From positions 1 through 39,910 of the forward strand of contig JAIEMM010000014.1 of the NCBI GenBank assembly GCA_019752125.1: a DNA stretch of 39,910 nucleotides, written 5' to 3'. Each line of letters starts with the position of its first letter. Within the stretch, counting starts at the first letter, position 1. Below are positions 3,377 through 39,910 of the stretch, piece by piece. The stretch is from Patescibacteria group bacterium. Its GTDB lineage: Bacteria > Patescibacteriota > Minisyncoccia > Phycocordibacterales > SBAW01. The notes below the pieces were generated by a model that had not been told where the DNA came from, made no database searches, and worked only from the letters and a program-made list of their open reading frames with translations. The translations under genes were made by a program, and so were the position numbers.

Positions 3377-3405
3377 TATCTTCCTCGCTAGACTATAATT
3401 AGCTC

Positions 3406-4023
3406 GTGAACCCAATTGAGCGACTAACTGACCTCTTCAAAGAATTTCCTGGCATTGGTCCAAGGCAGGCACGACGGTTCGTGCAATTTCTGCTTAGCCA
3501 GCAGCCAGGATTCCGCGGCGATCTCTCCGAAGCAATAAAACATTTGGGTACTGAAACTGCGCAGTGCAAGTCTTGCCTACGTTGGTATGCAAAAGGTTCT
3601 GAACATAATGGACTATGTTCCATCTGCGGAAGCGCGTCACGCGACAAATCCATATTGTTTGTTGTGGAAAAAGACGCTGATATAGAAAATATTGAACACA
3701 GCGGCTTCCGTGGGCTTTACTTTGTATTAGGTGGCACTATTCCACTTGCCTCTGAATCGCCTGAAAAGCACGTGCGTCTGCGCGAAATGATTAAACGCGT
3801 AGAAGCAGATGCGTCTAATCTTCAGCTCACCGAGGTCATTTTAGGTCTTTCTGCGACAACTGAGGGAGACCACACCCGCCTTATCATCCAAGAGAAACTT
3901 CTACCAGTTTCTGAGGGTCTTAATTTTAAAATCTCATCTCTTGGCCGCGGCCTCTCCACCGGTTCTGAGCTGGAATATGCCGACCCAGACACCATCGCCA
4001 GCGCCCTTTCTTCTCGCCAGTAA
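3406..4023 (+). CDS. recR: Recombination protein RecR (GTG start)
   Basis: LFKEFPGIGPRQARRFVQFLL helix-hairpin-helix; CxxC...CxxC zinc finger; TOPRIM domain. Confidence 0.93.
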   Translation: MNPIERLTDLFKEFPGIGPRQARRFVQFLLSQQPGFRGDLSEAIKHLGTETAQCKSCLRWYAKGSEHNGLCSICGSASRDKSILFVVEKDADIENIEHSGFRGLYFVLGGTIPLASESPEKHVRLREMIKRVEADASNLQLTEVILGLSATTEGDHTRLIIQEKLLPVSEGLNFKISSLGRGLSTGSELEYADPDTIASALSSRQ

Positions 4024-4039
4024 TCCACATGTGGAATTT

Positions 4040-4068
4040 TTGACAAATTTGTTTTTACGGGGTATAAA
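4040..4068 (+). promoter_or_regulatory. Sigma70-type promoter for the 4104 small gene
   Basis: TTGACA (4040-4045), 17-bp spacer, TATAAA (4063-4068). Confidence 0.7.
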
Positions 4069-4103
4069 AATATCGGCAACGTACAAATAGGGAGAGACAG
4101 AAA

Positions 4104-4286
4104 ATGTCGGAAGAGAAAAAAGACACGGGCAAAGTCGCCCAGCCCCAACTGCTTCGTCATGGGATCGGAGCCCGTGTTCGACAGGTCGACGACGTGGATC
4201 CACATGGCGGGAGGTATTGGCCATTGGAGCCAAGCAACCCCGACCCTGAAGTTCACAACCCCCCAAACAAACACGGCATCGAGTAG
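4104..4286 (+). CDS. Small orphan protein (60 aa), Pro/His-rich
   Basis: Own consensus promoter, purine-rich GGGAGAGACAG upstream of ATG, terminator downstream; no family recognised. Confidence 0.55.
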   Translation: MSEEKKDTGKVAQPQLLRHGIGARVRQVDDVDPHGGRYWPLEPSNPDPEVHNPPNKHGIE

Positions 4287-4310
4287 CCTCGGTGCTGGTC
4301 GAATACAAAA

Positions 4311-4340
4311 GACCGCCCTTTCGGACGGTCTTCTTTTTTT
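4311..4340 (+). terminator. Rho-independent terminator
   Basis: gaccgccctttcggacggtc followed by ttcttttttt. Confidence 0.8.
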
Positions 4341-4343
4341 GTC

Positions 4344-4700
4344 TTATTTGATGCTTGAGATTTTTACCTCAAAGAATGGCTGCTTGTGGCCACGCTTCTT
4401 GTAGTAGTTGCTCTTCGCCTTGTACTTGATGACAGTAACTTTTGGTGCGCGAGAGATTTTAGAGATTTCAGCAGAGATAGTTGCACCCTTAATGAAAGGG
4501 GTGCCGATAGTGGTATCTGAGCCAGATTCAACCAAGAGGACATCACTGAAAGAGACCTTGTCTCCAACCTTGTGTTCACCTGCGAGCTTTTCGATCTTCA
4601 CGCTATCGCCTGCAGAAACCATATACTGTTTCCCGCCAGTCTGGAATATCGCAAATTCGCTTGTTTTTGCTGTTTTTTCAGCTTTTTCTTTGGTTGCCAT
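4344..4700 (-). CDS. rplU: 50S ribosomal protein L21
   Basis: FAIFQTGGKQYMVSAGDSVKIEKL ... KYKAKSNYYKKRGHKQPFFEVKISSI. Confidence 0.94.
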   Translation of the reverse strand: MATKEKAEKTAKTSEFAIFQTGGKQYMVSAGDSVKIEKLAGEHKVGDKVSFSDVLLVESGSDTTIGTPFIKGATISAEISKISRAPKVTVIKYKAKSNYYKKRGHKQPFFEVKISSIK

Positions 4701-4722
4701 AACGCGAACTACTATACCCTAC

Positions 4723-5052
4723 TTAGGCTTTTTCGACAACTACCGCTGTACCGTAGGCCAAAACCTCAGCCACACCGGCTGAAATTTCGTTGGCGTCATA
4801 GCGCATACCGATAATGGCATTAGCGCCCATGGCCTCTGCGTGCTCACAGAGGAGCTCGAAGGCATCTTCACGGCTCTTCTCGCAAAGTTCCGTAAAAAGC
4901 GAAATATTGCCACCGACAATGGTCTGTAGGCCAGCTCCTATTGAGCCAATAATAGAACGTGAGCGAACGATAATACCGCGCGCCACTCCTACGTTTTTCA
5001 CAATCTTGTATCCTGGCAGTTCAAGTCCCGTTGTAACCATGCTTTGTTCCAT
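4723..5052 (-). CDS. YbjQ/UPF0145 family protein
   Basis: [37 protein letters not shown]...[13 protein letters not shown] is typical of the YbjQ family. Confidence 0.85.
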
Positions 5053-5064
5053 ATATTCGATATA

Positions 5065-6147
5065 TTATTCTTTCCCTTCTAGTAATGGTTTATCCAACAC
5101 CGGCACATCTATAGCAATTTCTACCGACGCATCTATTTTAAGCACGTCCTTTTCTATCTTGCCCAATTCCTTGGTACCAGCATTGAAGTGGTTAACGGTT
5201 GTAGAAAGAGAAGCTCCCAACTTTTTGTAATAGTCTTGGTACGCATTGATGTGGCGGCCAAGCGCTTCAACATTTTTAGCAATATCCTTTGCCTGCGCCT
5301 CAATCTTGAATGCCTTGAAGCCGTACAACACTGACTGCAGATATGCGGCAAAGGTTGTGGGCGATACGATGATCACTTTCTTCTCGTTCTGCGCGTAATC
5401 CAACAGACTGCGAGTATTTACGGCGCCAATTCCATCATTCAACAGGTCGTAGTAGATGCTCTCAGCTGGAATATACATAAACGCGAATGGTAGTGTGCCA
5501 TCTTTAGGGCGCACATATTTGCTAGTCTCATCAATGCGTTTTTTAAGATCGCGCTTAAAGGCTTCTTCAAATTCGGCCCGGCGGATATCATCTTTTTCGT
5601 CGTGTATGCGGGTGTAGTTTTCCAGGGGGAATTTTGCATCAACTGGTATAAAGCCCTCTTTGGTACGAATTATTGCATCAACTGTTTCTCCACCTGGAAA
5701 TTCGTACTGCATAGCGTACGCGCCTGGCGGCAAGATGTTACTCATGACGAGTTCGAGGCTTGCCTCGCCCAAGTTGCCGCGCTGTTTTTGATTCTTGAGA
5801 ACTTTTTCCAAATTGCTGAGCTGCTCTGCAATAACGAAGACTTGTTTTGTAGATTCTTGCGTTTGGGTCACTCCCTTAACCACCTCAAGAAGCTGGTCTT
5901 GTACCTGTTTAGTGATGGTGCTCATAAGGCGCTGAGCCTGTTCAGATTGAGAGCTGGCCAGTTCTGACATACTGCGCGTCCCCTCCCCGAGCTTGAGGTC
6001 CATGGAGCGAGTTAGTTCAGCCAATTGGTTCTGCATAAGCATCAAACCTTGAGTATTTTCAGGCTCCTGTTTTTGCTGGCTGCGGAAATAGATAAAAAGC
6101 TGGAACCCCAGCACCGCCACAAGCAAAACAATCATAAGCCATTCCAT
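5065..6147 (-). CDS. rmuC: DNA recombination protein RmuC
   Basis: N-terminal TM, coiled coil, then RGNLGEASLELVMSNILPPGAY...VDAIIRTKEGFIPVDAKFPLENY. Confidence 0.92.
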   Translation of the reverse strand: MEWLMIVLLVAVLGFQLFIYFRSQQKQEPENTQGLMLMQNQLAELTRSMDLKLGEGTRSMSELASSQSEQAQRLMSTITKQVQDQLLEVVKGVTQTQESTKQVFVIAEQLSNLEKVLKNQKQRGNLGEASLELVMSNILPPGAYAMQYEFPGGETVDAIIRTKEGFIPVDAKFPLENYTRIHDEKDDIRRAEFEEAFKRDLKKRIDETSKYVRPKDGTLPFAFMYIPAESIYYDLLNDGIGAVNTRSLLDYAQNEKKVIIVSPTTFAAYLQSVLYGFKAFKIEAQAKDIAKNVEALGRHINAYQDYYKKLGASLSTTVNHFNAGTKELGKIEKDVLKIDASVEIAIDVPVLDKPLLEGKE

Positions 6148-6176
6148 AAAGGCATTTTAGCATGTAGACTAATTCC

Positions 6177-6629
6177 ATGACACAAAGTGAATTAAAGGAG
6201 CAGCTCAAGGACGCAATGCGCGCCAAAGACGCTGTTAAATTATCGGTTATTCGTGGGCTTATGTCGGCTATGACCAACGAGGCAGTTGCCAAGGGTAAGG
6301 GTCCGGACGGCATACTTACCGAGGAAGAGGCTCTTACGGTTGTTATGCGCGCAGCAAAGCAGCGCAAGGACTCTATCGAGCAGTTTGAAAAAGGCGGCCG
6401 CCCTGAACTCGCAGAAGGCGAAAAGGTTGAGCTCGCGTTTATCCAGACCATGCTTCCTGCACAGATGTCTCGCGAAGAGATTGTTGCAGCAGCTACTGCA
6501 AAGGCAGCAGAAATGGGCGTAACTGATAAATCTGGAGCAAACCAGTTTATGGGAGCCTTGATGAAGGACCTCAAAGGCAAAGCAGACGGCACTCTTGTAA
6601 AGGAAGTTGTCGACTCAATGTTTGCGTAA
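6177..6629 (+). CDS. yqeY: GatB/YqeY domain protein
   Basis: LKDAMRAKDAVKLSVIRGLMSAM...KQRKDSIEQFEKGGRPELAEGEKVEL. Confidence 0.93.
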   Translation: MTQSELKEQLKDAMRAKDAVKLSVIRGLMSAMTNEAVAKGKGPDGILTEEEALTVVMRAAKQRKDSIEQFEKGGRPELAEGEKVELAFIQTMLPAQMSREEIVAAATAKAAEMGVTDKSGANQFMGALMKDLKGKADGTLVKEVVDSMFA

Positions 6630-6652
6630 TCCTCGCTAGATTCGTTGACAAT

Positions 6653-6690
6653 GCAGGGAACAACCTCTACGGTAACGTAAGAGGTTGTTT
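6653..6690 (+). terminator. Terminator after yqeY (overlaps the candidate promoter of the next gene)
   Basis: aacaacctct...agaggttgtt stem followed by ttgtttt. Confidence 0.7.
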
Positions 6691-6716
6691 TGTTTTCCAA
6701 CCCTAAGGAGACCGCT

Positions 6717-7013
6717 ATGCCAGTGCGTCTAATCCTTGCAACAGCACTTCTCACACTGCTGTTCACGCCCTCCAGGGTGGAGAGCCGCGGAGACACGCAG
6801 TCTATGCGCTCGTTCCAGCCCGACATGCTCGAACTACGCAGCACTGAAAGTCTCTATTTCCTACTGAGAGCTCCTCCCCCACAAGAGTCACGGCCGTACT
6901 GGAGGCCCATCTCTCATATCCCAGGAGATGGAGAGTCGTGCGACCCCAGACCCTTCATGTCTCGAAGCGGCGTGATGATAAAACTCTGCGAACGGTGGGA
7001 GCTCACACGATAA
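6717..7013 (+). CDS. Small secreted or membrane-anchored orphan protein
   Basis: AAGGAG Shine-Dalgarno, hydrophobic N-terminus MPVRLILATALLTLLFTP, private terminator; start placed at 6717. Confidence 0.6.
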   Translation: MPVRLILATALLTLLFTPSRVESRGDTQSMRSFQPDMLELRSTESLYFLLRAPPPQESRPYWRPISHIPGDGESCDPRPFMSRSGVMIKLCERWELTR

Positions 7014-7016
7014 AAG

Positions 7017-7050
7017 CCGGAACGTCATTGCTTCCGGCCTTTTTCTTTTG
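7017..7050 (+). terminator. Rho-independent terminator
   Basis: gccggaacgtcattgcttccggc followed by ctttttctttt. Confidence 0.75.
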
Positions 7051-7179
7051 AACTTACAAAATCTCTCGAATTTTGCTATCATCGCATTGTCCGCAGTCGG
7101 CCCTATAATCTAGCGAAGCGAGAGAACAAAAGCTTACTTTTGATTCCGAGCGAGCGACGATTACATGGCCGACGCAGTC

Positions 7180-7251
7180 GGCCCTATCGTCTAACGGTTA
7201 GGACGGAAGCTTCTCAAGCTTTAAATCGGGGTTCGATTCCCCGTAGGGTCA
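7180..7251 (+). tRNA. tRNA-Glu(CUC)
   Basis: Acceptor GGCCCTA/TAGGGTC, D arm, anticodon loop TTCTCAA, T arm CGGGGTTCGATTCCCCG; CCA not encoded. Confidence 0.93.
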
Positions 7252-7253
7252 CA

Positions 7254-7298
7254 AAAAGCGACGAACACCTCCCCTGCGGGAGGTTTCGTGCTTTTTGT
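7254..7298 (+). terminator. Hairpin/terminator downstream of tRNA-Glu
   Basis: aaaaagc...cctcccctgcgggagg...gctttttg. Confidence 0.65.
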
Positions 7299-7400
7299 GA
7301 GGCCGGAGCGATGTTTTGCACTTGCAAAACCGCGAGGCGGGGGCTGCGTGCGAGTTTGCTGACGAGCAAACTCGACATGTGGCTCACGTATAAAAATAAA

Positions 7401-7420
7401 GACGATGCCGTAGCATCGTC
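7401..7420 (-). terminator. Terminator for the 7432-7980 minus-strand gene
   Basis: Perfect stem GACGATGC-CGTA-GCATCGTC followed on the minus strand by tttattttt. Confidence 0.7.
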
Positions 7421-7431
7421 CCGACTTAACC

Positions 7432-7980
7432 TTACCCAGGCTCTTGCCTGTGGTACTTCTTCTGGATGAATAGGTCCCGATGGAAGCCAACGGCCATGCC
7501 CTCAGCGTCCCTGAGATGCCTTTTTGCGCCGTTGCTGTACCAGAGCAACCAACCGATCATCTCGGGAGTGAAATTCGGCGTTCCGCCATAGGTTGGATTC
7601 AACACAGTCGAAAGATGTGGATGAATCCGACGCACCGTATCGATATGCCCCTGGCACATCTGTGAGAAATGTCGTCGGCGTAGAGTTGCACACTTCTGCT
7701 CGAGAAATTCGAGGTAACTCAGGTTCGGTGTCTCGACAACTCCCCCACCAGGAAGTATATCCTTGTAGACGCGAATCATGCCGTCGGGAATGTTGGGGCA
7801 GTCCGGGCAAGTTATGCCCACCGCCACCATCTCTTCCTCAATCGTCATACTCTTTGGAGCGGCTATCTTGAGCTGAGTTTCTTGCTGAACCTTATCTTCA
7901 GCATCGAAGCCGATAGACATAAGCCAGAAGGCGCTCAGCATTATGACGAGGAAATAGCCGAAATCATTATTGCGACCCAT
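7432..7980 (-). CDS. Orphan membrane-anchored protein with CPDC motif
   Basis: Strong SD (CAGGAGA) before ATG, N-terminal TM segment, own terminator; no family recognised. Confidence 0.65.
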   Translation of the reverse strand: MGRNNDFGYFLVIMLSAFWLMSIGFDAEDKVQQETQLKIAAPKSMTIEEEMVAVGITCPDCPNIPDGMIRVYKDILPGGGVVETPNLSYLEFLEQKCATLRRRHFSQMCQGHIDTVRRIHPHLSTVLNPTYGGTPNFTPEMIGWLLWYSNGAKRHLRDAEGMAVGFHRDLFIQKKYHRQEPG

Positions 7981-8064
7981 GAGAGTCTCCTGTGATGTTC
8001 AATTCATGGTTAAAATAACACGTTTTAGAATTATTTCATCTACCTAAATGTTATACTGACGAAC

Positions 8065-8442
8065 ATGGAAAAACCGATGAGCCAGAAAAAGTTCCAAGCC
8101 TCTGTGGCCGAAGGCTTTGCAAAAACTCAAGAATTCCAAACCTTCGCAGTAAAACGCTTTACAGAGATGGAAAAGTTCCAGACTTTCGCAGTCAAACGCC
8201 TTGCAGAAATGGAAAAATTCCAAGGGCTGGTATTGGAACAATTCACCCGTCTATGGGAAGAATTTTCTGCCTTAAAGACTGAAATGCGGGGAGGTTTCAA
8301 AGAACTCCACGCAAGGATTGACGGAGTAGAGACTGTACTTAACCCCCTATCTAAAGCCGTGGATACGGATTCGGAAAAAATACTTGATCACGACAAACGC
8401 CTTCTACGCGTTGAAAAGGTAGTTGGTATAAAGAAGGCCTGA
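8065..8442 (+). CDS. Coiled-coil protein with tandem ~14-aa repeats
   Basis: EFQTFAVKRFTEMEK/FQTFAVKRLAEMEK/FQGLVLEQF repeats; extended -10 TGTTATACT 7 nt before ATG. Confidence 0.7.
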   Translation: MEKPMSQKKFQASVAEGFAKTQEFQTFAVKRFTEMEKFQTFAVKRLAEMEKFQGLVLEQFTRLWEEFSALKTEMRGGFKELHARIDGVETVLNPLSKAVDTDSEKILDHDKRLLRVEKVVGIKKA

Positions 8443-8445
8443 AAA

Positions 8446-9765
8446 TCAACGTTTCTTCCAATCCCCTTCCTGACGGACCAACAGTCTTGGAGCAAGCTCT
8501 GGGTCTTTCATAAGATGTTCAACTGTTTTTTCCATGCGGATACTCTGAGAACCTTTTACAAGAACGCAATCTCCGGGCTGGAGCATTTCTGCAATTTCGT
8601 CCCCCGCCTTATCGGCATCTTCGTACTGGAAAATATTTCCATCAGCAAAACCGTTATCAAGCGCGCCATCAGCAATACCACGCGCGCGGAACCCCACTGT
8701 GCAAAGAATATCTACCTTGCCCGCAGCATAGGCTCCAAGTTTGCGGTGCTCTTCTACGGAGTGGCGACCAAGCTCGAGCATGTCACCAAGCATGGCAATT
8801 CTCCTACCCTTTGGCGCAACCAAGTTAAGCGCATCGATTGCCGCCTGTGCTGCCGCAGGCGAAGAGTTATATGTGTCATCAATAACAAGCGTGTCTTTGA
8901 TACCCTCTATCAAATGCATGCGTCCTCGCGGAGGTTCGTATGTTGAAATTCCGTGCGCGATAGCGTGCGAGTCTACGCCCACGACATGTCCCACAGCAGC
9001 CGCAGCAACTGCAGGCAACATCATATGACTGCCGACAGTCCCGACAATAGAGACAGGAATGTTGGTGTGCTCAATAGTAATCTTTCCTGCAACACCTACA
9101 GGCCATCCGCCAGCTGGCGGACCATCTCCACTTTCGCGTAACAGCGAGAACTCGCTCGCATGAACATCAGCACTATGTGAAAGACCGAAGGTTACTATCT
9201 TCGCGCCGTGTTTCTCTGCTTTTTTTACAAGAACATCTTTGCGAGCGTCGTCTGCATAGATAATCACCGTGCCCGCAGATGAAAGTGCGTTGATGAGTGA
9301 TGCTTTCTCTTGAACCACGGCTTCGGGCGAATCAAAAAATTCTACGTGCACTGGAACTTCCGGCAAACGTGTTATGACTGCAATGTCGACCGGTAACCAC
9401 GCAGCGAGCGAGCTAATGTCGCCCGGTCTGTCTGCACCCACCTCAAGCACAAGCCATTTTGGATATGTTGCGTTAGACAAAATAAGGAACAGGCCATCAA
9501 TGAGATTCTGGATCCAGTGCAGCGGATTATTCCATGCGTTTGGTACACCTAAAATAGTGAGCGGAAGTCCTATTTCGCTATTGAAACTCTTATCGCTTTT
9601 ACGCACATGATACGACTGCGCAAGGACTGCGTAGATTGCATCTTTTGTTGATGTCTTACCCACACTGCCCGTTATCGCAACGATATGTGGTTTGTATTTA
9701 CGAACAATAAGCCTGGCCTCGAGCGTGAGCAAAGAAACAATGCATCGTTTAAGTATGCTGCGCAT
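8446..9765 (-). CDS. murF: UDP-N-acetylmuramoyl-tripeptide--D-alanyl-D-alanine ligase
   Basis: AITGSVGKTSTKDAI P-loop; VIDDTYNSSPAAAQAAI; GSQSIRME near the C-terminus. Confidence 0.93.
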   Translation of the reverse strand: MRSILKRCIVSLLTLEARLIVRKYKPHIVAITGSVGKTSTKDAIYAVLAQSYHVRKSDKSFNSEIGLPLTILGVPNAWNNPLHWIQNLIDGLFLILSNATYPKWLVLEVGADRPGDISSLAAWLPVDIAVITRLPEVPVHVEFFDSPEAVVQEKASLINALSSAGTVIIYADDARKDVLVKKAEKHGAKIVTFGLSHSADVHASEFSLLRESGDGPPAGGWPVGVAGKITIEHTNIPVSIVGTVGSHMMLPAVAAAAVGHVVGVDSHAIAHGISTYEPPRGRMHLIEGIKDTLVIDDTYNSSPAAAQAAIDALNLVAPKGRRIAMLGDMLELGRHSVEEHRKLGAYAAGKVDILCTVGFRARGIADGALDNGFADGNIFQYEDADKAGDEIAEMLQPGDCVLVKGSQSIRMEKTVEHLMKDPELAPRLLVRQEGDWKKR

Positions 9766-13568: not shown

Positions 13569-13622
13569 GCGCACAGTTTAGCATTTTGGATGATGAAATT
13601 TTTCTAAAGTTTTTACTAGAAC

Positions 13623-15107: not shown

Positions 15108-15146
15108 GAAGACTATTGTAGCCTTATTTTTATATATCTTTCAGTC

Positions 15147-17792: not shown

Positions 17793-17810
17793 ACGGCCAT
17801 TTTAACAGGA

Positions 17811-18077: not shown

Positions 18078-18876
18078 ACGAATTTTTTTCTATCTCAACA
18101 AAGCGTAGGGACACAAGGTCGACAGGCAAACGCGCATATAGTGTCACAAAGGATTGTTTCGGATCAAAAAGTACCGATGAAACAGTGCCCGCAAGCGCGC
18201 TTGCAACTCCAGGAAACACGATTGAGTTCCCCACTTTGACCGGAGTGCCAGCTGGCACTTGTCCAACGAATGAGCCGGAGCCTTGCCCTTGCATGCTGAC
18301 AGGAACTATCTGTGTCGTACTTGAAAGATGAAGAAGCGCATCGTACGTTTGTCCAGGCGCTGAAAATAGAATTACACGCGATGTGTGTCCATAGACTTCC
18401 CCAACCGTACCAATGCGCGTCGTGCCACCGGCTGAAACAAAGTCACCTGAGTGCACACCTTCAGTTTCTCCCGCATCTATGAGAAGTGTGTCGTACGGGA
18501 TTGCAGGTGGACGCATGAGAACACCAGCCAATATTCTTTCACCACTTGTCTGCGCAGGCAGGCGCCCCAAGCGATTTTTAAGTTCAATAGTTTCTTGATA
18601 TAGGGCGTTTCTGTCAGCAAGGAGGGCGGTTGTAGAAGCAAGTTCAGCGCGAAGACGTTGGTTGTCGGAGGAATCGAGCCCAACACGCGCGCGCTGAAGC
18701 GGCGACATGAGTGCCCATGCGGCAGACTCAATTTCACGATGCCAAAAAACTCCCGCGCCTAACAGGACCAGGCACACAATTGCAAATACAAACGAGCGGA
18801 ATGAAAACCAGCCGCCAGGTTTCCGTCCTGTGGAATATACTGAACGCGAACTAAAAGGATTAGAAGTCCTCGCCAT
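18067..18876 (-). CDS. mreC: Rod shape-determining protein MreC
   Basis: N-terminal TM, coiled coil, then GVHSGDFVSAGGTTRIGTVGEVYGHTSRVILFSAPGQ; next to mreB. Confidence 0.85.
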   Translation of the reverse strand: MARTSNPFSSRSVYSTGRKPGGWFSFRSFVFAIVCLVLLGAGVFWHREIESAAWALMSPLQRARVGLDSSDNQRLRAELASTTALLADRNALYQETIELKNRLGRLPAQTSGERILAGVLMRPPAIPYDTLLIDAGETEGVHSGDFVSAGGTTRIGTVGEVYGHTSRVILFSAPGQTYDALLHLSSTTQIVPVSMQGQGSGSFVGQVPAGTPVKVGNSIVFPGVASALAGTVSSVLFDPKQSFVTLYARLPVDLVSLRFVEIEKNSYAH

Positions 18877-19912
18877 ATTCAAGCAAGAGATCTTGGTATA
18901 AAGGGAGATTTTCCAAAATAACGCCCGTGCCACGCGCAACAGCCGTAAGAGGGTCGTCTGCAACTGTAACGGGAACTTTGAGCCATTGTGAGAGAAGTTG
19001 GTCTAAGCCTTTCAAAAGCGCTCCTCCGCCAACAAGCGTAATCCCGGAACGCATCACGTCGGAAAGAATTTCTGGCGGTGTTGTTTCGAGCACTTCGCGG
19101 ACGCTCTCAACAAGCGTATCTATAGACTGTGAAATTGCTTCGCGGATATCCTGGTCAGTAAGAATAATTTCGCGTGGCAACCCAGAAATAAGGTCGCGTC
19201 CACGAACGACTGCTTGCGACTCCTGTCCGCCCTCAATGACAGAACCTATCGCCATCTTTACCTCTTCCGCAGTTTTCTCGCCGATCAATATCTTAAATTC
19301 CGAGCGGACGTATGCAATGATGTCCTGATTGAGTTTGTCGCCTGCGCTACGCAAGTTTTTTGCGCGCACAATACCACCAAGCGAGAGCACGGCGATGTCG
19401 ACAGTTCCCCCACCAATATCAACAATCATGCTGCCCACGGCTTCTCGAATAGGCAGGCGCACACCAAGCGCCGCGGCAACAGGTTCTTCAACAATATGCA
19501 CTTCGCGCGCACCCGCGTTTTGCGCCGCATCTTTTACTGCACGCATCTCTACGTTGGTGATGCCAGCAGGCACACCAATGACAGCACGGGGCCCTAGCAT
19601 TTTGCGAGATACACCTTGTGCCTGGTTGATAAGGTACGCGATCATCTCCTCTGTTGCTTCGAAATCAGACACAACACCATCGACAAGCGGGCGCACTGCC
19701 GTTAAGTGGCCAGGCGTGCGGCCAAGCATATCGCGCGCAGCTTTTCCTACCGCTACCACCTGGTTTGTTTTTTGGTTTACGGCAACAACGGAAGGTTCGT
19801 TTACAACTATCCCCTTTCCGCGCATATATACGAGCGTATTGGCAGTTCCTAAGTCTATGCCAACATCATTCGATAATAGTGGGAATATTTTATTTTTTAG
19901 TCGTTCTATCAT
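18860..19912 (-). CDS. mreB: Rod shape-determining protein MreB (copy 1)
   Basis: NDVGIDLGTANTLVYMRGKGIVVNEPSVVAVN; IVDIGGGTVDIAVLSLGGIV; GGALLKGLDQLL. Confidence 0.96.
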   Translation of the reverse strand: MIERLKNKIFPLLSNDVGIDLGTANTLVYMRGKGIVVNEPSVVAVNQKTNQVVAVGKAARDMLGRTPGHLTAVRPLVDGVVSDFEATEEMIAYLINQAQGVSRKMLGPRAVIGVPAGITNVEMRAVKDAAQNAGAREVHIVEEPVAAALGVRLPIREAVGSMIVDIGGGTVDIAVLSLGGIVRAKNLRSAGDKLNQDIIAYVRSEFKILIGEKTAEEVKMAIGSVIEGGQESQAVVRGRDLISGLPREIILTDQDIREAISQSIDTLVESVREVLETTPPEILSDVMRSGITLVGGGALLKGLDQLLSQWLKVPVTVADDPLTAVARGTGVILENLPLYQDLLLEYGEDF

Positions 19913-21224: not shown

Positions 21225-21287
21225 AGTTCATTCATTCTACGGGGAAAGTACTCTTGTGGCAAAAGGCTTTTTTCGGCCCAGCCTTAC

Positions 21288-22520: not shown

Positions 22521-22540
22521 TCCTGGTATCATTATTTCAA

Positions 22541-25768: not shown

Positions 25769-25802
25769 TGCGTAAGTATACCAGAGTGGAATTCCGTGTC
25801 GG

Positions 25803-27211: not shown

Positions 27212-28225
27212 TTATCGCTTTGCGATGATGGCTTTTTTGTATGTCTCCAAGTGGTCGAGTGCGATGCCGGTGCCTCGAGCAACGCACAGTAGCGGCTCAT
27301 CAGCAACACGTGCCTTTACACCCGTGCGACGAAGTACAAGTTCTGGAAAATGGCGGAGCATGGAAGTTCCTCCTGTCATAATAATCCCACGATCAATAAT
27401 ATCGCTCGCAAGTTCTGGTGGAGTCTCCTGGAGCACATCGCGAATCGCTTTAATGATTTCTCGTAGTTCCTTCCCCATCGCTTTCACCAAGTCATTGGTC
27501 TTGAGCTCTGCACTGCGTGGCAAACCTGTAATAAAGTCACGGCCACGCACTGTCATAACAAGCTCTTCTTCCATAGGCACAGCTGAACCTACGCCGATCT
27601 TCACATCTTCAGCTGTCTTTTCACCAATACCTAAGTTGTATGTTCTCTTTATATAGTCTGCGATTGCATGGTCGAGTCTATCGCCACCACACTTAACAGA
27701 AGTAGAAGCAACAATGCCTCCAAGCGAAATCACCGCAACGTCGCATGTACCACCACCAATATCAACTACCATATTGCCGCGCGCTTCGTGGATTGGAATT
27801 CCTGCACCAATGGCCGCAAGTACGGACTCCTTCACCACATACGCATTCTTTGCTCCTGCTTTTATTGCCGCCTCAACAACCGCACGACGCTCTGTTGAAG
27901 TAACGCCAGTAGGCACGGAGACCATCACTTCCGGGCGGAAGAGTTGCATCTTGCCAAGTGCTTTTGAAATAAAATAACGAAGCATTGCCTGTGTAACGCG
28001 GTAGTCGGAAATAACTCCGTCTTTCATTGGGCGGTACGCAATAATCTCGCCCGGCGTGCGGCCGATCATTTCTTTTGCCTCGGCGCCCACTGCCAAAATA
28101 CGCTTATCAATTTCAGAAATCGCCACCACCGACGGTTCATTCAAAACAACTCCCTTCCCTGGCACATACACGAGTGTGTTTGCGGTGCCTAAATCGATTC
28201 CTAGTTTCGGCGTAAAGAATGCCAT
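27212..28225 (-). CDS. mreB: MreB/MreB-like (copy 2)
   Basis: LGIDLGTANTLVYVPGKGVVLNEPSVVAIS; VVDIGGGTCDVAVISLGGIV. Confidence 0.95.
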   Translation of the reverse strand: MAFFTPKLGIDLGTANTLVYVPGKGVVLNEPSVVAISEIDKRILAVGAEAKEMIGRTPGEIIAYRPMKDGVISDYRVTQAMLRYFISKALGKMQLFRPEVMVSVPTGVTSTERRAVVEAAIKAGAKNAYVVKESVLAAIGAGIPIHEARGNMVVDIGGGTCDVAVISLGGIVASTSVKCGGDRLDHAIADYIKRTYNLGIGEKTAEDVKIGVGSAVPMEEELVMTVRGRDFITGLPRSAELKTNDLVKAMGKELREIIKAIRDVLQETPPELASDIIDRGIIMTGGTSMLRHFPELVLRRTGVKARVADEPLLCVARGTGIALDHLETYKKAIIAKR

Positions 28226-29795: not shown

Positions 29796-29894
29796 GCGCT
29801 AAGTATAGCAACAATCCTTTCACTAGCAGAAACTCTCCTTGACCACAAAAACGACTTAGGTTCTACTACTATACGGTTAACGCAGGGGGCGAGT

Positions 29895-31744: not shown

Positions 31745-32037
31745 TCCGCGATAGCTCAATGGTAGAGCAGCTCCCTGTCGATAGGCAGCCTCCTGGAGGA
31801 ATCCAGGTTGCAAACGAGGTGAATTGTCTGGAAACCCTAGTCTCGTTTTGAGACGGGTAATCAGCAGCCAAGCCCCACTCTGGGGAAGGTTCAGAGACTA
31901 TTCCAAATGGAAGTAGTCCCGAATGTCGGGACGAAGCGCCTCGCACCGAGAACCGGTGATGATATAGTCCACGCCCTTAAGTAATTTAGGGATCACGTGT
32001 AAGGAGTTGGTTCCAGGTTCGAGTCCTGGTCGCGGAG
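31745..32037 (+). tRNA. tRNA-Asn(GUU), interrupted by a group I intron (exons 31745-31778 and 32000-32037)
   Basis: Spliced exons give a 72-nt cloverleaf: acceptor TCCGCGA/TCGCGGA, anticodon loop CTGTTAA, T arm CCAGGTTCGAGTCCTGG, discriminator G. Confidence 0.9.
31779..31999 (+). other. Group I self-splicing intron (~221 nt, no homing-endonuclease ORF)
   Basis: P1 CUGU^CGAUAGGCAG with U.G at 5'SS; P-like GAAUUGUCUGGAAACC; Q-like AAUCAGCAGCCAAGCC; R UUCAGAGACUA; S GAUAUAGUCC; P7 GACUA/UAGUC; terminal G. Confidence 0.9.
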
Positions 32038-32169
32038 CACTTTTTCTGACCATATTTTCCAAAGCTAATTTAGGTACCATAATTGGACATCAGAACTTTT
32101 TGTAGTGTTTGGATGACATTTTTAAATAAACTTGTATAGTGGCGTTGACCCCAACTTTGGAGGACGGTC

Positions 32170-32657: not shown

Positions 32658-32774
32658 TCCTTTTACACAAACCCCAACCTTTGGATTTCTTTACTCACCT
32701 GCATCCACTCCATAGTTCTGAACGCGTCCAGCGAGTGGAGCAGACATTTTTAAATGGTGTGGTATTGTTCCGCT

Positions 32775-33999: not shown

Positions 34000-34019
34000 G
34001 GAGTCCTCCTGGGGTTGGA

Positions 34020-34295: not shown

Positions 34296-34298
34296 CCT

Positions 34299-34594: not shown

Positions 34595-35089
34595 GTGATG
34601 AGTACCTTACCCCTTATTGATCCCCAAAAACTCCGACGTGTCTATCAGGAGTTCCCTTGGCTTGAAGCATTGCTCAACAAGCGCGGCTTCAAGTATCAAG
34701 GGTTTGAACGGTTGATAACCGCATTCCGAGTGCAGCGTGTCGATACTGCATTGCTTGCACGTAGCCCTAAAGCACACATGTACAGCAACGACGCTACGGC
34801 TTATCTGGGCAAACACTCCGAGCGACTGTTTGTGCTCGATGCCGATGGAAGGCCCCTCGTGCAGGTCGGAATGATTCCCCACCCAATGCCTTTGTTGTTG
34901 CGTTGGTGGAGAAAGGCCATCATCCGTTTCAACAAATCTGAGACTTGCGAGCAGGCTCTCGCTCGAATCGGCGAAGGGGCGGCCCGTCGGGCACGCTTCA
35001 TAGTTTCACTCACGCCAGTGCAGGTTGGAGACAGTGGAACGGAAGGTCATGCGACTTTCCTCAACGACGTTGTTCTCTACAAGTTCTGA
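34595..35089 (+). CDS. Orphan protein of unknown function
   Basis: GCAGGAGG SD, TTGACT/TATTGT promoter at 34480-34507, private terminator. Confidence 0.7.
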   Translation: MMSTLPLIDPQKLRRVYQEFPWLEALLNKRGFKYQGFERLITAFRVQRVDTALLARSPKAHMYSNDATAYLGKHSERLFVLDADGRPLVQVGMIPHPMPLLLRWWRKAIIRFNKSETCEQALARIGEGAARRARFIVSLTPVQVGDSGTEGHATFLNDVVLYKF

Positions 35090-35107
35090 GTCCGCCACTT
35101 TTGAAGG

Positions 35108-35145
35108 CCGTCCCCTCCCACTTCGGAGTGGACGGTCTTTTTCTT
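35108..35145 (+). terminator. Rho-independent terminator
   Basis: ggccgtcccctcccacttcggagtggacggtc followed by tttttctttacc. Confidence 0.65.
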
Positions 35146-35257
35146 TACCTAACATGGGTTCTTACATCATCCATCCAGCGGAGCAAAATATCTCAACACA
35201 CTTTTTCGATTTTTATGGTACCTGACACATTCCCATTCCCGTGAGGGCGGTTTCTTT

Positions 35258-35650
35258 TTATTGTTGTACGTTGTACCAACTTTTTTGCCACGCCTGCATT
35301 TGCTGTATCTCAGTTGTTTGAGCAGAGATGATGTTCTGCGCCATCTGTTTGAGCTCAGGATGTTTAGCGTCTGTCAGCGCTGCTTTGGCCATAGAAACAG
35401 CCCCCTCATGATGAACAATCATTTCAGAGAGAAACGCTTTGTCAAAATCGTCACCCGTCTTACCTGAAAGACCGACCATCATGTCGTCCATGGCGTTACC
35501 CATCCCCATTCCGTTATCGTCCATCATCATGCCGTTAGACATCACGTGGCTACCCGTTTCAGCGGCCTGGTTTCCATGAGCGACATACCCCGCACCAAAC
35601 CCAATAATGAGAACGAGGAGCGCAATCACGAGTACATTATTTTTTTCCAT
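35258..35650 (-). CDS. DUF305 family protein
   Basis: N-terminal TM, Met-rich segment, DFDKAFLSEMIVHHEGAVSMAKAAL...HPELKQMAQNIISAQTTEIQQMQAW. Confidence 0.9.
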   Translation of the reverse strand: MEKNNVLVIALLVLIIGFGAGYVAHGNQAAETGSHVMSNGMMMDDNGMGMGNAMDDMMVGLSGKTGDDFDKAFLSEMIVHHEGAVSMAKAALTDAKHPELKQMAQNIISAQTTEIQQMQAWQKSWYNVQQ

Positions 35651-35711
35651 ATAGAAACTATACTCCCATGTACCTCAAAAAAGAACCATTTCCTGCTATA
35701 GTGGGTAGTAC

Positions 35712-36479
35712 ATGAATTATCTGGACGCAACAATACTAGGGGTTGTTGAAGGGCTGACAGAGTTTTTGCCTATCTCTTCGACAGGACATTTAATACTGAC
35801 CAGTCATGTGCTCAGGTTGGCAGAAACGGATTTTGTAAAAAGTTTTGAAATAGCAATTCAACTTGGTGCAACTTTTGCAGTTGTTGTACTTTTCTGGAGA
35901 TTGTTTTTAAACATAGAGGTGCTTAAAAAAACATTTGTTGCGTTCTTACCAACAGCCATCATAGGTCTTGCTCTGTATTCATTTGTGAAGACATATTTGC
36001 TCGGCAATGAATCAGTTGTTCTTGCAGCCCTTCTACTTGGCGGCATTGTTCTTATATGTTTCGAATATATACACAAGGAATCTCGAGAGGCTGTCGCGGA
36101 TATTGAGTCCATTTCTTACAAACAAGCATTTGGCGTAGGCTTCTTCCAAGCTATTGCGATTATCCCAGGAGTCTCTCGTTCTGCCGCATCCATATTGGGA
36201 GGCCTTTTGCTTGGCCTTAACCGCACCACGATAGTTCAATTTTCTTTTCTCGTTGCTGTACCAACTATGGCTGCAGCCACAGGGCTCGACTTACTCAAGA
36301 ACTATAAAACCTTTTCTGTAAGCGACGCGGGGCTGCTATGTGTCGGCTTTGTGACCGCTTTCGTCGTCGCATTACTGGTTATGCGTTTCTTTTTATCCTA
36401 CATACGTACGCGGACATTTATCCCGTTTGGTATATATCGTATAGCCATAGCCCTTCTTTTCTTCTTCGTCGTGTTGTAA
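35712..36479 (+). CDS. uppP: Undecaprenyl-diphosphatase
   Basis: GVVEGLTEFLPISSTGHLIL; PGVSRSAASILGGLLLGL. Confidence 0.95.
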   Translation: MNYLDATILGVVEGLTEFLPISSTGHLILTSHVLRLAETDFVKSFEIAIQLGATFAVVVLFWRLFLNIEVLKKTFVAFLPTAIIGLALYSFVKTYLLGNESVVLAALLLGGIVLICFEYIHKESREAVADIESISYKQAFGVGFFQAIAIIPGVSRSAASILGGLLLGLNRTTIVQFSFLVAVPTMAAATGLDLLKNYKTFSVSDAGLLCVGFVTAFVVALLVMRFFLSYIRTRTFIPFGIYRIAIALLFFFVVL

Positions 36480-36500
36480 ATCAAGGAATATACTTAGCGT

Positions 36501-36857
36501 ATGCCTGACAACGTATTACTAGCCCTTATTGCAGGCGTGGCCGTCGTCGGAATTCGTCTTGGTGTGTGGTGTATTCCTGAAGTGGATGTAAAGATGTTCC
36601 GCACCGTAATTCACCATTTTTGGTTTGGAATATTTTTTATGGTTCTCTCGTTTCCCCTCTCTGCCATTAACCATACGCTTGGAGTTGTGGCGCTGGGCGT
36701 AGGGCTTGGCCTCGCCGCAGACGAACTAGTGTTTATGCTACGTGGTGGTGGACGTGACAAACAGTATTGGACAGCACCCTCTATACTGGGCGCTCTTATC
36801 CTACTCGTATCAATCTTTTATTTCCAAACTAGTCTCGTGAGCTTTTTGTTTACTTAG
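36501..36857 (+). CDS. Hypothetical membrane protein
   Basis: Several hydrophobic segments; TATACT 6 nt before ATG. Confidence 0.65.
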   Translation: MPDNVLLALIAGVAVVGIRLGVWCIPEVDVKMFRTVIHHFWFGIFFMVLSFPLSAINHTLGVVALGVGLGLAADELVFMLRGGGRDKQYWTAPSILGALILLVSIFYFQTSLVSFLFT

Positions 36858-37255
36858 TGTATCCCAAACATTGAGGCTACCCAGAATGTAGCGACAGAGA
36901 CAGTGGCTGCTACTGTGGCGCCCCACATAAGGTCAACCATGCTGACCAAGAACGGCCAATCCTTGAGTGTCGAGAGGTTTGTAAGGTCGTATGTTGCGTA
37001 ACTAATAAACCCCAACAAGGCTCCAAACAAAAGTGCGTGCACCCATGAACCCTTTTCAACTGCGGGCTGGATAACAAAGATAACGAGGCCTGCAACAAAA
37101 ATGCAGTAGAAAATAATCGCTGCCGTCCAGTTGATGTCAGTTTTCATAAGCGCCCCTATCTGCTTGAGATAAAAACTTTTTGCAACCAACCCAAGCCATA
37201 GCATGTCGATTGCAAAAAACACAGGGAGCGCGATTGCGAAAAGTTTTATAAACAT
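36854..37255 (-). CDS. DUF2177 family membrane protein
   Basis: AIDMLWLGLVAKSFYLKQIGALM...LGFISYATYDLTNLSTLKDWP...VDLMWGATVAATVS. Confidence 0.88.
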   Translation of the reverse strand: MFIKLFAIALPVFFAIDMLWLGLVAKSFYLKQIGALMKTDINWTAAIIFYCIFVAGLVIFVIQPAVEKGSWVHALLFGALLGFISYATYDLTNLSTLKDWPFLVSMVDLMWGATVAATVSVATFWVASMFGIH

Positions 37256-37259
37256 ACAA

Positions 37260-37889
37260 TTATTTAATTTCTACCATTACTTCGTTTCTACTCATCCATG
37301 GCGGTGTCCAGGGCGCGTTGTAGCCAGCATACTGGGGCGCGCCCACAACCTCCACACCATCGCGAGAGAGTGACGAGAGTAGATTTTTTTGCATTTGTTG
37401 TATACGCGTGTCGCTCCTAAACCAAGAGAAGCGGAGCGCTGCCATTTTTTGAGCTGGAACCTCCACAATCTGCACCCGAGAGTCAGTCGGCACAGGAAGC
37501 GTGTCGAGCGTGTAGGAACGTGGCATGCCAAACGAGATTACGTGAGACTCTCCTTTGGTGGTGGCAAGTACAGGCGCGGTCATAGCAATTTTTTGTGACG
37601 ACGTACTTCGTTCTGTTACAGGAGCTGTCATTGCCACACGTTCTTTTTTTGCATTACCTCCAAATATATACCCAGCAACAATACGAAATCCTTCACTGAG
37701 GGCTTCATCATACGGACCTTGCACGGTTGTTTGCGCAACAATATGGGCCGGGTAATTCCGGATCTCATATCCATCAGCTTTCTTTTCAACAACATACGAC
37801 ATTTGCTCTACCCGCGACGAAAGATATCCCCAGAGAGTCCAAAGAACAAACATTACAGCAAGCACAGTAACAATAAGGAGATTGTTCAT
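37260..37889 (-). CDS. SOUL heme-binding family protein
   Basis: YVVEKKADGYEIRNYPAHIVAQTTV...RVAMTAPVTERSTSSQKIAMTAPVLA...PAQKMAALRFSW. Confidence 0.9.
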   Translation of the reverse strand: MNNLLIVTVLAVMFVLWTLWGYLSSRVEQMSYVVEKKADGYEIRNYPAHIVAQTTVQGPYDEALSEGFRIVAGYIFGGNAKKERVAMTAPVTERSTSSQKIAMTAPVLATTKGESHVISFGMPRSYTLDTLPVPTDSRVQIVEVPAQKMAALRFSWFRSDTRIQQMQKNLLSSLSRDGVEVVGAPQYAGYNAPWTPPWMSRNEVMVEIK

Positions 37890-37934
37890 TTATTAAGTGT
37901 ACCATAATGGCCTCTGCACGATATACTTCTTTAT

Positions 37935-38642
37935 ATGGAACTACGACGCGGCAATGAGGACTTAGAGAGGCTCAACCAAAGCCTCAACGACCCTCATGTA
38001 CTAAAGGCCTATAAAGGATCTTGTGATCATTACAAGGTATCGTTTCTACCCCACATTCTTGGATGCATACTCGTCTGGTGCGGAAATACAGTGTATGGAA
38101 AAGAGCCAACGTATCTAAAATTCCGCGCCGTAGAGGTCATTGCTCGTGTTCCGTACCATTCATGGTCATCTGCTGCTTTTACTCTCCTGACACTGTTTTA
38201 TTCAAATGAGCAAAAAGCAATGCGCCTTTCCACTATCACAAAGTATGCACGACTAGCTCAAGACAACGAGACTATGCACGTCGTTGTTATTTCTCAACTC
38301 GCTAAAGTCGAGGAACGAACTGGAGTTATCCGACACACACTTATTCCAATGATATTCGCCTTCTTTTATTTTTGGTGGTCGTACTTCCTATACCTTATCA
38401 ACCCTCGATACTCCTACGAGCTCAACTATATGTTCGAGAATCACGCATTTGAGCAATACAGCAGGTTTTTGGAGACGCGCGGTGAAGAGCTTAAGAAAAA
38501 ACTACTACACAGTGACTTCCTCACATGGTATGGTCGTCACCCACACACCCAATATAACTTTTTCCTTTCAGTCCGTAATGATGAAATAATTCATCGAAAC
38601 ACCTCGATCCACGAGATCCAGCACGGCGGTAAGGTATATTAA
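37935..38642 (+). CDS. Alternative-oxidase-like diiron protein
   Basis: AVEVIARVP (LET-like), DNETMH (NERMH-like), FENHAFEQYSRFL (LEEEA-like), RNDEIIHRN (RADEAHH-like); all six diiron ligands appear present. Confidence 0.8.
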   Translation: MELRRGNEDLERLNQSLNDPHVLKAYKGSCDHYKVSFLPHILGCILVWCGNTVYGKEPTYLKFRAVEVIARVPYHSWSSAAFTLLTLFYSNEQKAMRLSTITKYARLAQDNETMHVVVISQLAKVEERTGVIRHTLIPMIFAFFYFWWSYFLYLINPRYSYELNYMFENHAFEQYSRFLETRGEELKKKLLHSDFLTWYGRHPHTQYNFFLSVRNDEIIHRNTSIHEIQHGGKVY

Positions 38643-38643
38643 T

Positions 38644-38672
38644 TTGACAATGCGCATTGTGTATTGTACTTT
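38644..38672 (+). promoter_or_regulatory. Sigma70-type promoter
   Basis: TTGACA, 17-bp spacer, TACTTT. Confidence 0.65.
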
Positions 38673-38705
38673 TCTATCTGTAGTTCTCTAGCCCAAGAGG
38701 TTGAA

Positions 38706-39026
38706 TTGAAAAAGTACTTTGTGGCGCTGGCTGTGCTTGCTGTATATCTTGCAGGCAGCAGCGCTAGCGCTCAGACACCTACCCCTGAAGACCCAGCGGC
38801 ATCGCGCCTCATGCAAGCCCATATCGATGCCTTGTCGGCCTGCAACAAAAAAGGCAGGTCTCAGTTAGACATAGGGCGCTGTGAAGGAGTAGTGTTCGGT
38901 AGCCTGGAGGCGTACCTCCTCGCCGCTGGGCGGTGTCATGAAGACCGCAAAGACACAGACTGCTCTGAAGCAAGTCGCCTGAGGCCTTTTGTAACCCGAG
39001 TTCTCGAGGCTTTTGCCAAGCAGTGA
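38706..39026 (+). CDS. Small secreted orphan protein (TTG start)
   Basis: AAGAGG SD 5 nt before TTG; signal peptide MKKYFVALAVLAVYLAGSSASAQ. Confidence 0.65.
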   Translation: MKKYFVALAVLAVYLAGSSASAQTPTPEDPAASRLMQAHIDALSACNKKGRSQLDIGRCEGVVFGSLEAYLLAAGRCHEDRKDTDCSEASRLRPFVTRVLEAFAKQ

Positions 39027-39061
39027 ACACAGCCGCTCCTCCCCCGAGGTAGCGGTTTTTC

Positions 39062-39619
39062 TTATACTCTGCTCTTTATATACTTCAACATAGTTGCTGC
39101 GTCAGACACTTCAAAAGGGTCTTCTGGGTTGTTATCCATATACCCCTCCTCGATAAACATTTTTTCAATAATGCCGTCAACGACGAGCATGCTGTAGCGC
39201 CAACTTCGCATACCAAAACCCAAATTTTCTTTCTTTACCAGCATGCCCATAGCGCGAGTAAAATCAGCGTTGCCGTCTGGAAGCATGGTGACATGTTTGA
39301 TGCCAAGCTGCTTACCCCAATGAGACATGACGAACGGGTCATTGACGCTCAGACATATCACTTCGTCGATGCCAAGATTCTTAAACTCCTCATGTGCCCT
39401 GTCGTAACCAGGCGCATGCGTACTTGAGCATGTAGGGGTAAACGCGCCAGGAAGTGCAAAAAGTATTACCTTTCTACCACTAAAAATTTCTTCTGAGGTT
39501 CGTGTGCTCCACGCAAACGCCATATCCATACAGGTGTTTTCGCTTGCAGGGCTATGTGTATGGACTTTAAATTCAACATCAGGGACACGGCACGGCTCAC
39601 AGGCTGGATGGTTGTTCAT
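39062..39619 (-). CDS. Peroxiredoxin (Prx5/redoxin type)
   Basis: FALPGAFTPTCSSTHAPGYDRAHEEFKNLGIDEVICLSVNDPFVMSHWGKQLG. Confidence 0.93.
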   Translation of the reverse strand: MNNHPACEPCRVPDVEFKVHTHSPASENTCMDMAFAWSTRTSEEIFSGRKVILFALPGAFTPTCSSTHAPGYDRAHEEFKNLGIDEVICLSVNDPFVMSHWGKQLGIKHVTMLPDGNADFTRAMGMLVKKENLGFGMRSWRYSMLVVDGIIEKMFIEEGYMDNNPEDPFEVSDAATMLKYIKSRV

Positions 39620-39675
39620 ATATACACAGTGTATTCGATAATTCTTCGCTTCGAAAGAGGTGCTATTATTTTTGT

Positions 39676-39910
39676 ATGAAAATTCAAATACGAGGGCGTA
39701 TTTTTATGCTCCTTATGGCCTCATCTTTGTTCTTTGTGCCTTCAGCCTTCGCCTCTGCAACTTCAGCTTCAGTGCCATCAGTCACTCCAGCCACAACCAT
39801 ATTGAACGGCCAGACTGTGTATTTTAGCGTTCTGCCTTCAGGGTTTACGAACCCCACATATTCGCTTACTGATTCGTTCAGCGGATCGTCAGCCTCAAGC
39901 GCAAACATCG
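39676..39910 (+). CDS. Secreted protein, N-terminal part (runs off the window)
   Basis: MKIQIRGRIFMLLMASSLFFVPSAFASATSASV signal peptide, Ser/Thr-rich; extended -10 TGCTATTAT 6 nt before ATG; absent from supplied ORF track because it is open-ended. Confidence 0.65.
   Translation, partial: MKIQIRGRIFMLLMASSLFFVPSAFASATSASVPSVTPATTILNGQTVYFSVLPSGFTNPTYSLTDSFSGSSASSANI

What the first reader, a model, noticed from the sequence alone, without database searches (positions are those of the whole stretch)
3394..39678. Backbone genes appear leaderless: -10 box sits 6-9 nt before the start codon with no Shine-Dalgarno
Read directly: recR TATAAT-6nt-GTG (3394); rmuC TGCTAAAAT-6-ATG (6154, minus); 8065 gene TGTTATACT-7-ATG; 13568 gene TGCTAAACT-6-ATG (minus); lysS TACAAT-7-ATG (minus); mrdA TGTTAAAAT-6-ATG (minus); ATP-grasp TGGTATCAT-8-ATG; frr TGGTATACT-6-ATG (minus); 29795 gene TGCTATACT-6-ATG (minus); 32775 gene TGGTATTGT-6-ATG; DUF305 TATAGT-6-ATG (minus); uppP TGCTATAGT-9-ATG; 36501 gene TATACT-6-ATG; SOUL TGGTACACT-6-ATG (minus); AOX-like TATACT-7-ATG; 39676 gene TGCTATTAT-6-ATG. 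Many carry an extended -10 (TGN). Since bacterial transcription starts about 6-8 nt after the -10, these mRNAs should begin at or next to the start codon. The fixed spacing in many unrelated operon heads suggests leaderless translation is the default here.
Basis: partly seen in the sequence, partly recalled or inferred. Interest (0 to 1): 0.8.

Follow-up and report, generated by a model that had tools for sequence, protein, structure and literature searches.

The report
Leaderless genes, ribosome lacks anti-Shine-Dalgarno
In this uncultured ultra-small bacterium (an Adlerbacteria-like Patescibacterium) about a quarter to a third of genes carry a promoter placed so close to the start codon that the messenger should begin at the AUG itself, and the ribosomal RNA of the whole order has lost the sequence that bacteria normally use to find start codons, so the textbook way of starting protein synthesis seems to have been dropped by an entire lineage.

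Summary
All 16 listed -10 boxes are there at the stated spacing. On 440 kb of the 702-kb genome, de novo motif finding on 226 operon heads returns TAtAcT at 6-8 nt before the start (LL 113.5; shuffles 20-35, shifted windows 30-41). Extended TGn (32/75), a -35 at 16-18 bp, 92/97 ATG starts, conserved position in distant orthologues and divergent starts only 20-33 bp apart all mark real promoters. 'Default' is too strong: the excess is about 27-30% of heads and 23% of closely spaced downstream genes. There is no Shine-Dalgarno (SD) signal. The explanation lies outside the window: the organism's own 16S rRNA ends ...GGAACAAUUCAAAU instead of ...GGAUCACCUCC. All 15 same-order genomes with a readable tail, and 77 of 147 in the class, lack CTCC; other classes of the phylum almost all keep CCTCC. 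No replacement SD complementary to the new tail exists. Leaderless genes are known in other bacteria, and anti-SD loss was listed for single Wolfebacteria and Campbellbacteria genomes (PMC10783764). The order- and class-wide loss, joined to leaderless promoters, I found nowhere in the held literature. TSS mapping remains decisive.

The parts
3394..3399 (+). -10 TATAAT, 6 nt before recR GTG (3406)
6154..6159 (-). -10 TAAAAT (extended TGC), 6 nt before rmuC ATG (6147)
   Evidence: -10 also in Adlerbacteria orthologue
6165..6170 (+). -10 TAGACT, 6 nt before yqeY ATG (6177); overlapping divergent promoters, only 29 bp between the two starts
8052..8057 (+). -10 TATACT (extended), 7 nt before ATG 8065
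13575..13580 (-). -10 TAAACT (extended), 6 nt before ATG 13568
15115..15120 (-). -10 TACAAT, 7 nt before lysS ATG (15107); position kept in 6 of 8 relatives
17799..17804 (-). -10 TAAAAT (extended), 6 nt before mrdA ATG (17792); same spacing in 3 of 5 relatives
21234..21239 (-). -10 TAGAAT, 9 nt before proS ATG (21224); TATACT-7/7/8 in three relatives
22527..22532 (+). -10 TATCAT (extended), 8 nt before ATP-grasp ATG (22541)
25775..25780 (-). -10 TATACT (extended), 6 nt before frr ATG (25768)
29802..29807 (-). -10 TATACT (extended), 6 nt before ATG 29795
32763..32768 (+). -10 TATTGT (extended), 6 nt before ATG 32775
35657..35662 (-). -10 TATAGT, 6 nt before DUF305 ATG (35650)
35697..35702 (+). 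-10 TATAGT (extended), 9 nt before uppP ATG (35712); divergent from DUF305, 61 bp between starts
36489..36494 (+). -10 TATACT, 6 nt before ATG 36501
37896..37901 (-). -10 TACACT (extended), 6 nt before SOUL ATG (37889)
37922..37927 (+). -10 TATACT, 7 nt before AOX-like ATG (37935)
39628..39633 (-). -10 TACACT, 8 nt before ATG 39619
39664..39669 (+). -10 TATTAT (extended), 6 nt before ATG 39676

Best explanation
The boxes are real housekeeping-sigma -10 elements, often extended (TGn) and sometimes with a -35 at 16-18 bp. They are placed 6-9 nt before the start codon, so that RNA polymerase should start at or within about 3 nt of the A of AUG, giving leaderless or near-leaderless mRNAs for roughly a quarter to a third of genes (operon heads and many closely spaced downstream genes). 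Ribosomes must find these AUGs without base-pairing to a leader: the 16S rRNA has lost the anti-SD (its tail is GGAACAAUUCAAAU) and no SD signal is seen upstream of operon heads or of closely spaced genes. Probable route: a 5'-terminal AUG is recognised directly (70S or IF2-assisted, as in known leaderless systems). The remaining genes start by an unstructured, A-rich, non-SD route or by reinitiation. Shown: promoter motif, spacing, ATG preference, conservation, absence of SD and of anti-SD. Inferred: the TSS position, the ribosome mechanism, and the order of evolutionary events (SD use is already weak in most sampled Patescibacteria, so SD decline probably came before anti-SD erosion).
For: De novo EM on 226 heads finds TAtAcT with spacers 6 (0.39), 7 (0.22), 8 (0.10), LL 113.5, against 20.5-35.2 for 15 dinucleotide shuffles and 30-41 for shifted windows. 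TGn precedes 32 of 75 such boxes; TTGACA-like (at least 4/6) at 16-18 bp in 21 against about 2 per other spacing. Genes with TANNNT at 6-7 start with ATG in 92/97, others in 214/314, with starts chosen on coding signal alone; TATAMT at 6/7 precedes ATG 40 per 10,000 against 2-9 for GTG, TTG, CTG, ATA, ATT. In relatives the -10 stays 5-9 nt before the start in 16 of 25 orthologues of six genes (lysS, frr, mrdA, proS, rmuC, yqeY; protein identity 44-87%), roughly 12% expected (my count; background). 15 of 53 divergent pairs have under 60 bp between starts, e.g. 20 bp CAT-GAGTCTATTATACTGAACTG-ATG with a -10 for each gene. 16S tail: G000:C1:148593-148639 ends TGGAACAATTCAAATG. All 15 same-order genomes lack CTCC, as do all further same-genus and same-order 16S loci with a readable tail. 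No enrichment of SD or of motifs complementary to the new tail (0.92-1.11x), while the same test gives 3.55x in G268, which has CCTCC.
Against: No RNA data: the TSS is inferred from the -10. Only about 27-30% of heads show a strong box, and my home-made gene caller leaves many starts uncertain. Anti-SD loss and leaderless signal do not track strictly: G516, G399 and G348 lack CCTCC with little leaderless excess, while G389 and G460 keep CCTCC and show some. Pyrimidine at -1 does not separate genes with and without a box.
Confidence: 0.85

Rival explanations
1. The boxes are promoters but not for leaderless mRNAs: transcription starts further downstream and the true start codon is an internal one, or the boxes serve as AT-rich, unstructured ribosome-entry regions within a longer leader.
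For: TSS distance can vary by a few nt; A-rich non-SD initiation regions exist in other bacteria lacking SD use (PMC5397173).
Against: A specific TGNTATAMT consensus with a -35 at 16-18 bp is not mere AT-richness; ATG dependence; spacing conserved in orthologues whose N-termini align within a few codons; 20-33 bp divergent gaps leave no room for leaders.
Confidence: 0.1
2. Chance or selection bias: AT-rich upstream DNA read by eye in one rich window.
For: The window holds 8 of 51 genome hits of TGNTANNNT-6-ATG in 5.7% of the genome.
Against: De novo motif, shuffles, shifted windows and other codons as controls all reject it genome-wide.
Confidence: 0.02
3. The missing anti-SD is an artefact: an intron between h45 and the tail, a pseudogene, an assembly error, or an anti-SD supplied by another molecule.
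For: CPR 16S genes often hold insertions (own knowledge); own genome and G046 carry a separate ...CTGGATCACCTCC element about 330-430 nt downstream of the 16S.
Against: The AT-rich tail sits at the same place directly after an intact h45 in all 15 same-order genomes and dozens of families; no TCACCTCC within the downstream DNA held (up to about 1.5 kb) except in those two genomes, where the element was not found in the 296 other same-order genomes searched and lies beside a terminator of the opposite strand.
Confidence: 0.05

Closest known systems
Leaderless (TA-led / GeneMarkS-2 leaderless-type) bacteria: Actinobacteria, Deinococcus-Thermus (Zheng 2011 PMC3160421; Lomsadze 2018 as cited in PMC9581028)
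   Same: -10 box about 10 bp before the start, ATG starts, about 20-46% of genes, TG before the Pribnow box in some low-GC genomes.
   Different: In the model leaderless genera SD-led genes and a working anti-SD coexist (own knowledge); here SD signal and anti-SD are both gone. No Patescibacteria in those surveys as far as the held text shows.
[quoted passage not shown] single Candidatus Wolfebacteria and Campbellbacteria genomes, SR1, Peribacter, Flavobacteriia, Hodgkinia, Carsonella
   Same: 16S without CCUCC and very few SD genes; two of its entries appear to be Parcubacteria-type lineages like this one.
   Different: There a few single CPR genomes, and the section read ties leader loss only to archaea; here the loss is shown order-wide and in about half of the class, with graded erosion and start-proximal promoters.
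Bacteroidetes non-SD initiation (anti-SD sequestered by bS21/bS18/bS6)
   Same: SD motif absent upstream of genes.
   Different: There most species keep the anti-SD and hide it (own knowledge); here it is deleted from the 16S and promoters are start-proximal.

Membership tests
Bacterial leaderless-gene architecture | -10-like TANNNT about 6-9 nt upstream of the start, above chance genome-wide | tested here: met
Bacterial leaderless-gene architecture | AUG start strongly preferred in those genes | tested here: met
   92/97 against 214/314
Bacterial leaderless-gene architecture | at least about 20% of genes | tested here: met
   excess 27% of heads, 23% of closely spaced genes
Bacterial leaderless-gene architecture | TSS coincides with the start codon | not testable with these tools
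   needs 5'-end sequencing
SD-scarce, CCUCC-less organisms (PMC10783764 category iv) | 16S 3' tail lacks CCUCC in the organism and its relatives | tested here: met
SD-scarce, CCUCC-less organisms (PMC10783764 category iv) | no upstream motif pairing with the altered tail | tested here: met
   0.92x; positive control 3.55x in G268
Bacteroidetes-type anti-SD sequestration | anti-SD present in 16S but occluded | tested here: not met
   anti-SD absent
Canonical SD-led bacteria | SD enrichment upstream of starts | tested here: not met
   heads 11 obs/11.8 exp, internal 5/8.1; 1.11x for the canonical tail complement

The most novel reading that the evidence does not exclude
An entire bacterial order, and about half of the sampled genomes of its class (Parcubacteria lineage), has dismantled the SD/anti-SD system at both ends (mRNA and 16S rRNA) and begins translation through leaderless 5'-AUG recognition plus an SD-independent route. 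The class holds every stage from CCTCC through CTCC to fully AT-rich tails, i.e. a natural series of the loss.
Probability: 0.65. Interest if true: 0.82.

Novelty: new variant of a known kind. Interest (0 to 1): 0.72.

Why it matters
The anti-SD is among the most conserved sequences in bacteria. A large clade that has lost it, with sister lineages at intermediate stages, lets one ask directly how ribosomes choose start codons without SD pairing, whether SD decline precedes anti-SD loss, and what the 3' tail of 16S is otherwise needed for. Practically, gene finders that reward SD sites will mis-call starts in these genomes, SD-based expression vectors should gain nothing from their SD in them, and their genes will probably be poorly translated in E. 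coli without an added SD.

Tried and rejected
A first 16S search in the own genome missed the gene; the tail pattern found it, cut by a contig end. Gene-free spacing counts over all ATGs were too diluted by coding sequence to compare genomes. Era (which binds GAUCACCUCC) as a covariate: the hits above cut-off lie in long two-domain frames that look like Der, so Era seems absent in all 79 genomes whatever the tail, and is uninformative. bS21-like and S1-domain proteins are present in the own genome and in anti-SD-plus and -minus genomes alike. Pyrimidine at -1 as a TSS hallmark does not discriminate. Literature: no held paper joins leaderless with Patescibacteria, Parcubacteria or Saccharibacteria in substance; Amin 2018 (PMC6107228) finds its exceptions mainly in Bacteroidetes, Tenericutes and Proteobacteria and its main text has no mention of Parcubacteria or CPR. 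Tsurumaki 2022 (smaller CPR ribosomes) is not held and could not be checked.

Full report
Identity. The window lies in a 702-kb, 14-contig, about 99% complete genome, GC 0.48. Its LysS is 76% identical to Candidatus Adlerbacteria and 64% to Kaiserbacteria, so it is an Adlerbacteria-like Patescibacterium (Parcubacteria lineage).

Observation. All sixteen -10 boxes are present as described; three more occur upstream of yqeY, proS and the 39619(-) gene. Genome-wide, TGNTANNNT-N6-ATG occurs 51 times against 14 for the reversed control, and TATAMT-N6-ATG 48 against 6.

Statistics. I called genes on 440 kb with an in-frame hexamer model that takes no account of upstream signals and grouped them by neighbour. 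In 210 heads TANNNT peaks at spacer 6 (32 against about 4.9) and TGNTANNNT at spacers 6-8 (27 against 1.5). With starts re-called (226 heads, 199 of them ATG), expectation-maximisation started from random words returns TAtAcT with spacers 6, 7, 8 weighted 0.39, 0.22, 0.10; log-likelihood 113.5 against at most 35 in shuffles and at most 41 in shifted windows. Of 75 boxed heads, 32 carry TG one base upstream, and TTGACA-like hexamers peak at 16-18 bp. These are promoters, not AT-rich leaders.

Independent support for leaderlessness. (a) Boxed genes begin with ATG in 92 of 97 cases against 214 of 314 for the rest, with starts chosen only on coding signal; no other codon shows a comparable excess. 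(b) The -10 keeps its 5-9 nt distance to the start in 16 of 25 orthologues of lysS, frr, mrdA, proS, rmuC and yqeY in Adlerbacteria, Kaiserbacteria, Lloydbacteria and other loci, although most of the proteins are only 44-76% identical and the surrounding upstream DNA is largely unrelated. (c) Divergent genes are often 20-33 bp apart start to start with two back-to-back -10 boxes, e.g. CAT-GAGTCTATTATACTGAACTG-ATG (20 bp) and CAC-CTCTAGAGTATAATCCAAAC-ATG (20 bp); little but leaderless or near-leaderless transcripts fits there.

How common. With a fixed score threshold and upstream windows as null, the excess is 27% of heads (30% of heads with an unambiguous ATG) and 23% of genes less than 25 bp behind another gene; G055 and G195 of the same order give 20% of heads and 17-22% of closely spaced genes; other sampled Patescibacteria range from about 0 to 19% of heads. 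So leaderless initiation is widespread here, comparable with Actinobacteria (around 20%) and Deinococcus-Thermus (around 40%) in Zheng 2011, but 'default' is not shown.

Why there is no Shine-Dalgarno. SD 4-mers are not enriched in heads (11 against 11.8) or closely spaced genes (5 against 8.1). The own 16S gene, cut by the end of contig C1, ends GUAACAAGGCACGGGUAGCGGAAGCUGCUCGUGGAACAAUUCAAAU: helix 45 is intact but GAUCACCUCC is replaced by GAACAAUUCAA. The same-genus and same-order 16S loci with readable tails have an AT-rich tail of this kind. A tail survey over 231 genomes of the phylum shows CCTCC kept in nearly all readable tails outside the class. Within the class, 147 genomes with readable tails divide into 50 with CCTCC, 20 with only CTCC and 77 with neither, the last in 49 families; the own order is 15 of 15 without. 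There is no downstream TCACCTCC that an intron could join, apart from an odd element in two genomes. Upstream regions are not enriched in complements of the new tail (0.92x), while the same test detects SD in G268 with CCTCC (3.55x). The system is gone at both ends, not re-coded.

Mechanism. Shown: promoter geometry, ATG dependence, absence of SD and anti-SD. Inferred: polymerase starts at the AUG; the 5'-terminal AUG is taken up directly by the ribosome as in other leaderless systems; genes without a box rely on weak structure and A-rich context or reinitiation. An S1-domain protein (about 370 aa, below the rpsA cut-off) and a bS21-like protein are still encoded. Since most sampled Patescibacteria that keep CCTCC also show little SD enrichment, SD decline probably came before anti-SD erosion. 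Anti-SD loss and leaderless excess do not match one to one across the class, so leaderlessness is not the only possible permissive condition.

Known or new. Leaderless genes with start-proximal -10 are well known (PMC3160421, PMC5397173, PMC9581028). Anti-SD loss is known in Flavobacteriia, Mycoplasma and reduced symbionts and, for CPR, in single Wolfebacteria, Campbellbacteria, SR1 and Peribacter genomes (PMC10783764). I found no paper in the held library that reports the order- and class-wide loss, the graded series, or leaderless promoters in this lineage; subscription papers, preprints and supplements could not be checked.

Noticed in passing
window 31745-32038 (+): A group I intron (Rfam RF00028, 86.8 bits) of about 221 nt interrupts the anticodon loop of a tRNA-Thr(UGU) just downstream of fmt; ARAGORN finds the tRNA only with introns allowed.
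   Followed up: partly
G000:C1:148215-148308 (L260/L261) and L124 (G046): About 330-430 nt downstream of the 16S: ACAAGGTAGCCGTA...CTGGATCACCTCC, the two flanks of helix 45 of a typical non-CPR 16S (with anti-SD), h45 replaced by a variable hairpin-rich insert, next to a terminator of the opposite strand. The opposite-strand RNA would be antisense to the 16S 3' end of ordinary bacteria. Not found in the 296 other same-order genomes searched, nor in viral contigs. Unexplained.
   Followed up: partly
window 7980 (-) and 21412 (+): Two genes with SD-like leaders (caggagactctc-ATG; gaaaggggaATG) in a genome without anti-SD; perhaps recent arrivals.
   Followed up: no
G000, genes less than 25 bp behind a co-directional gene: About 23% have their own start-proximal -10, often inside the end of the preceding gene, so tight gene spacing does not mean one operon here.
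   Followed up: partly
G399:C1 (L230-L239): Tail ACAATTCTTTTA without CCTCC, yet purine SD-like 4-mers are enriched in heads (17 against 5) and tail complements 1.55x: possible shifted anti-SD.
   Followed up: no
G246:C6:263-309: A canonical non-CPR 16S 3' end on a second contig of a same-order genome, probably contamination of the bin.
   Followed up: no
79 Patescibacteria genomes: Long two-domain Der/EngA-like frames appear among the listed hits only outside the class of the window (list truncated), no clear Era anywhere: possible loss of Der in this class.
   Followed up: no
window 18860-19912 (-) and 27212-28225 (-): Two different MreB-like genes in one 40-kb stretch of a reduced genome.
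   Followed up: no
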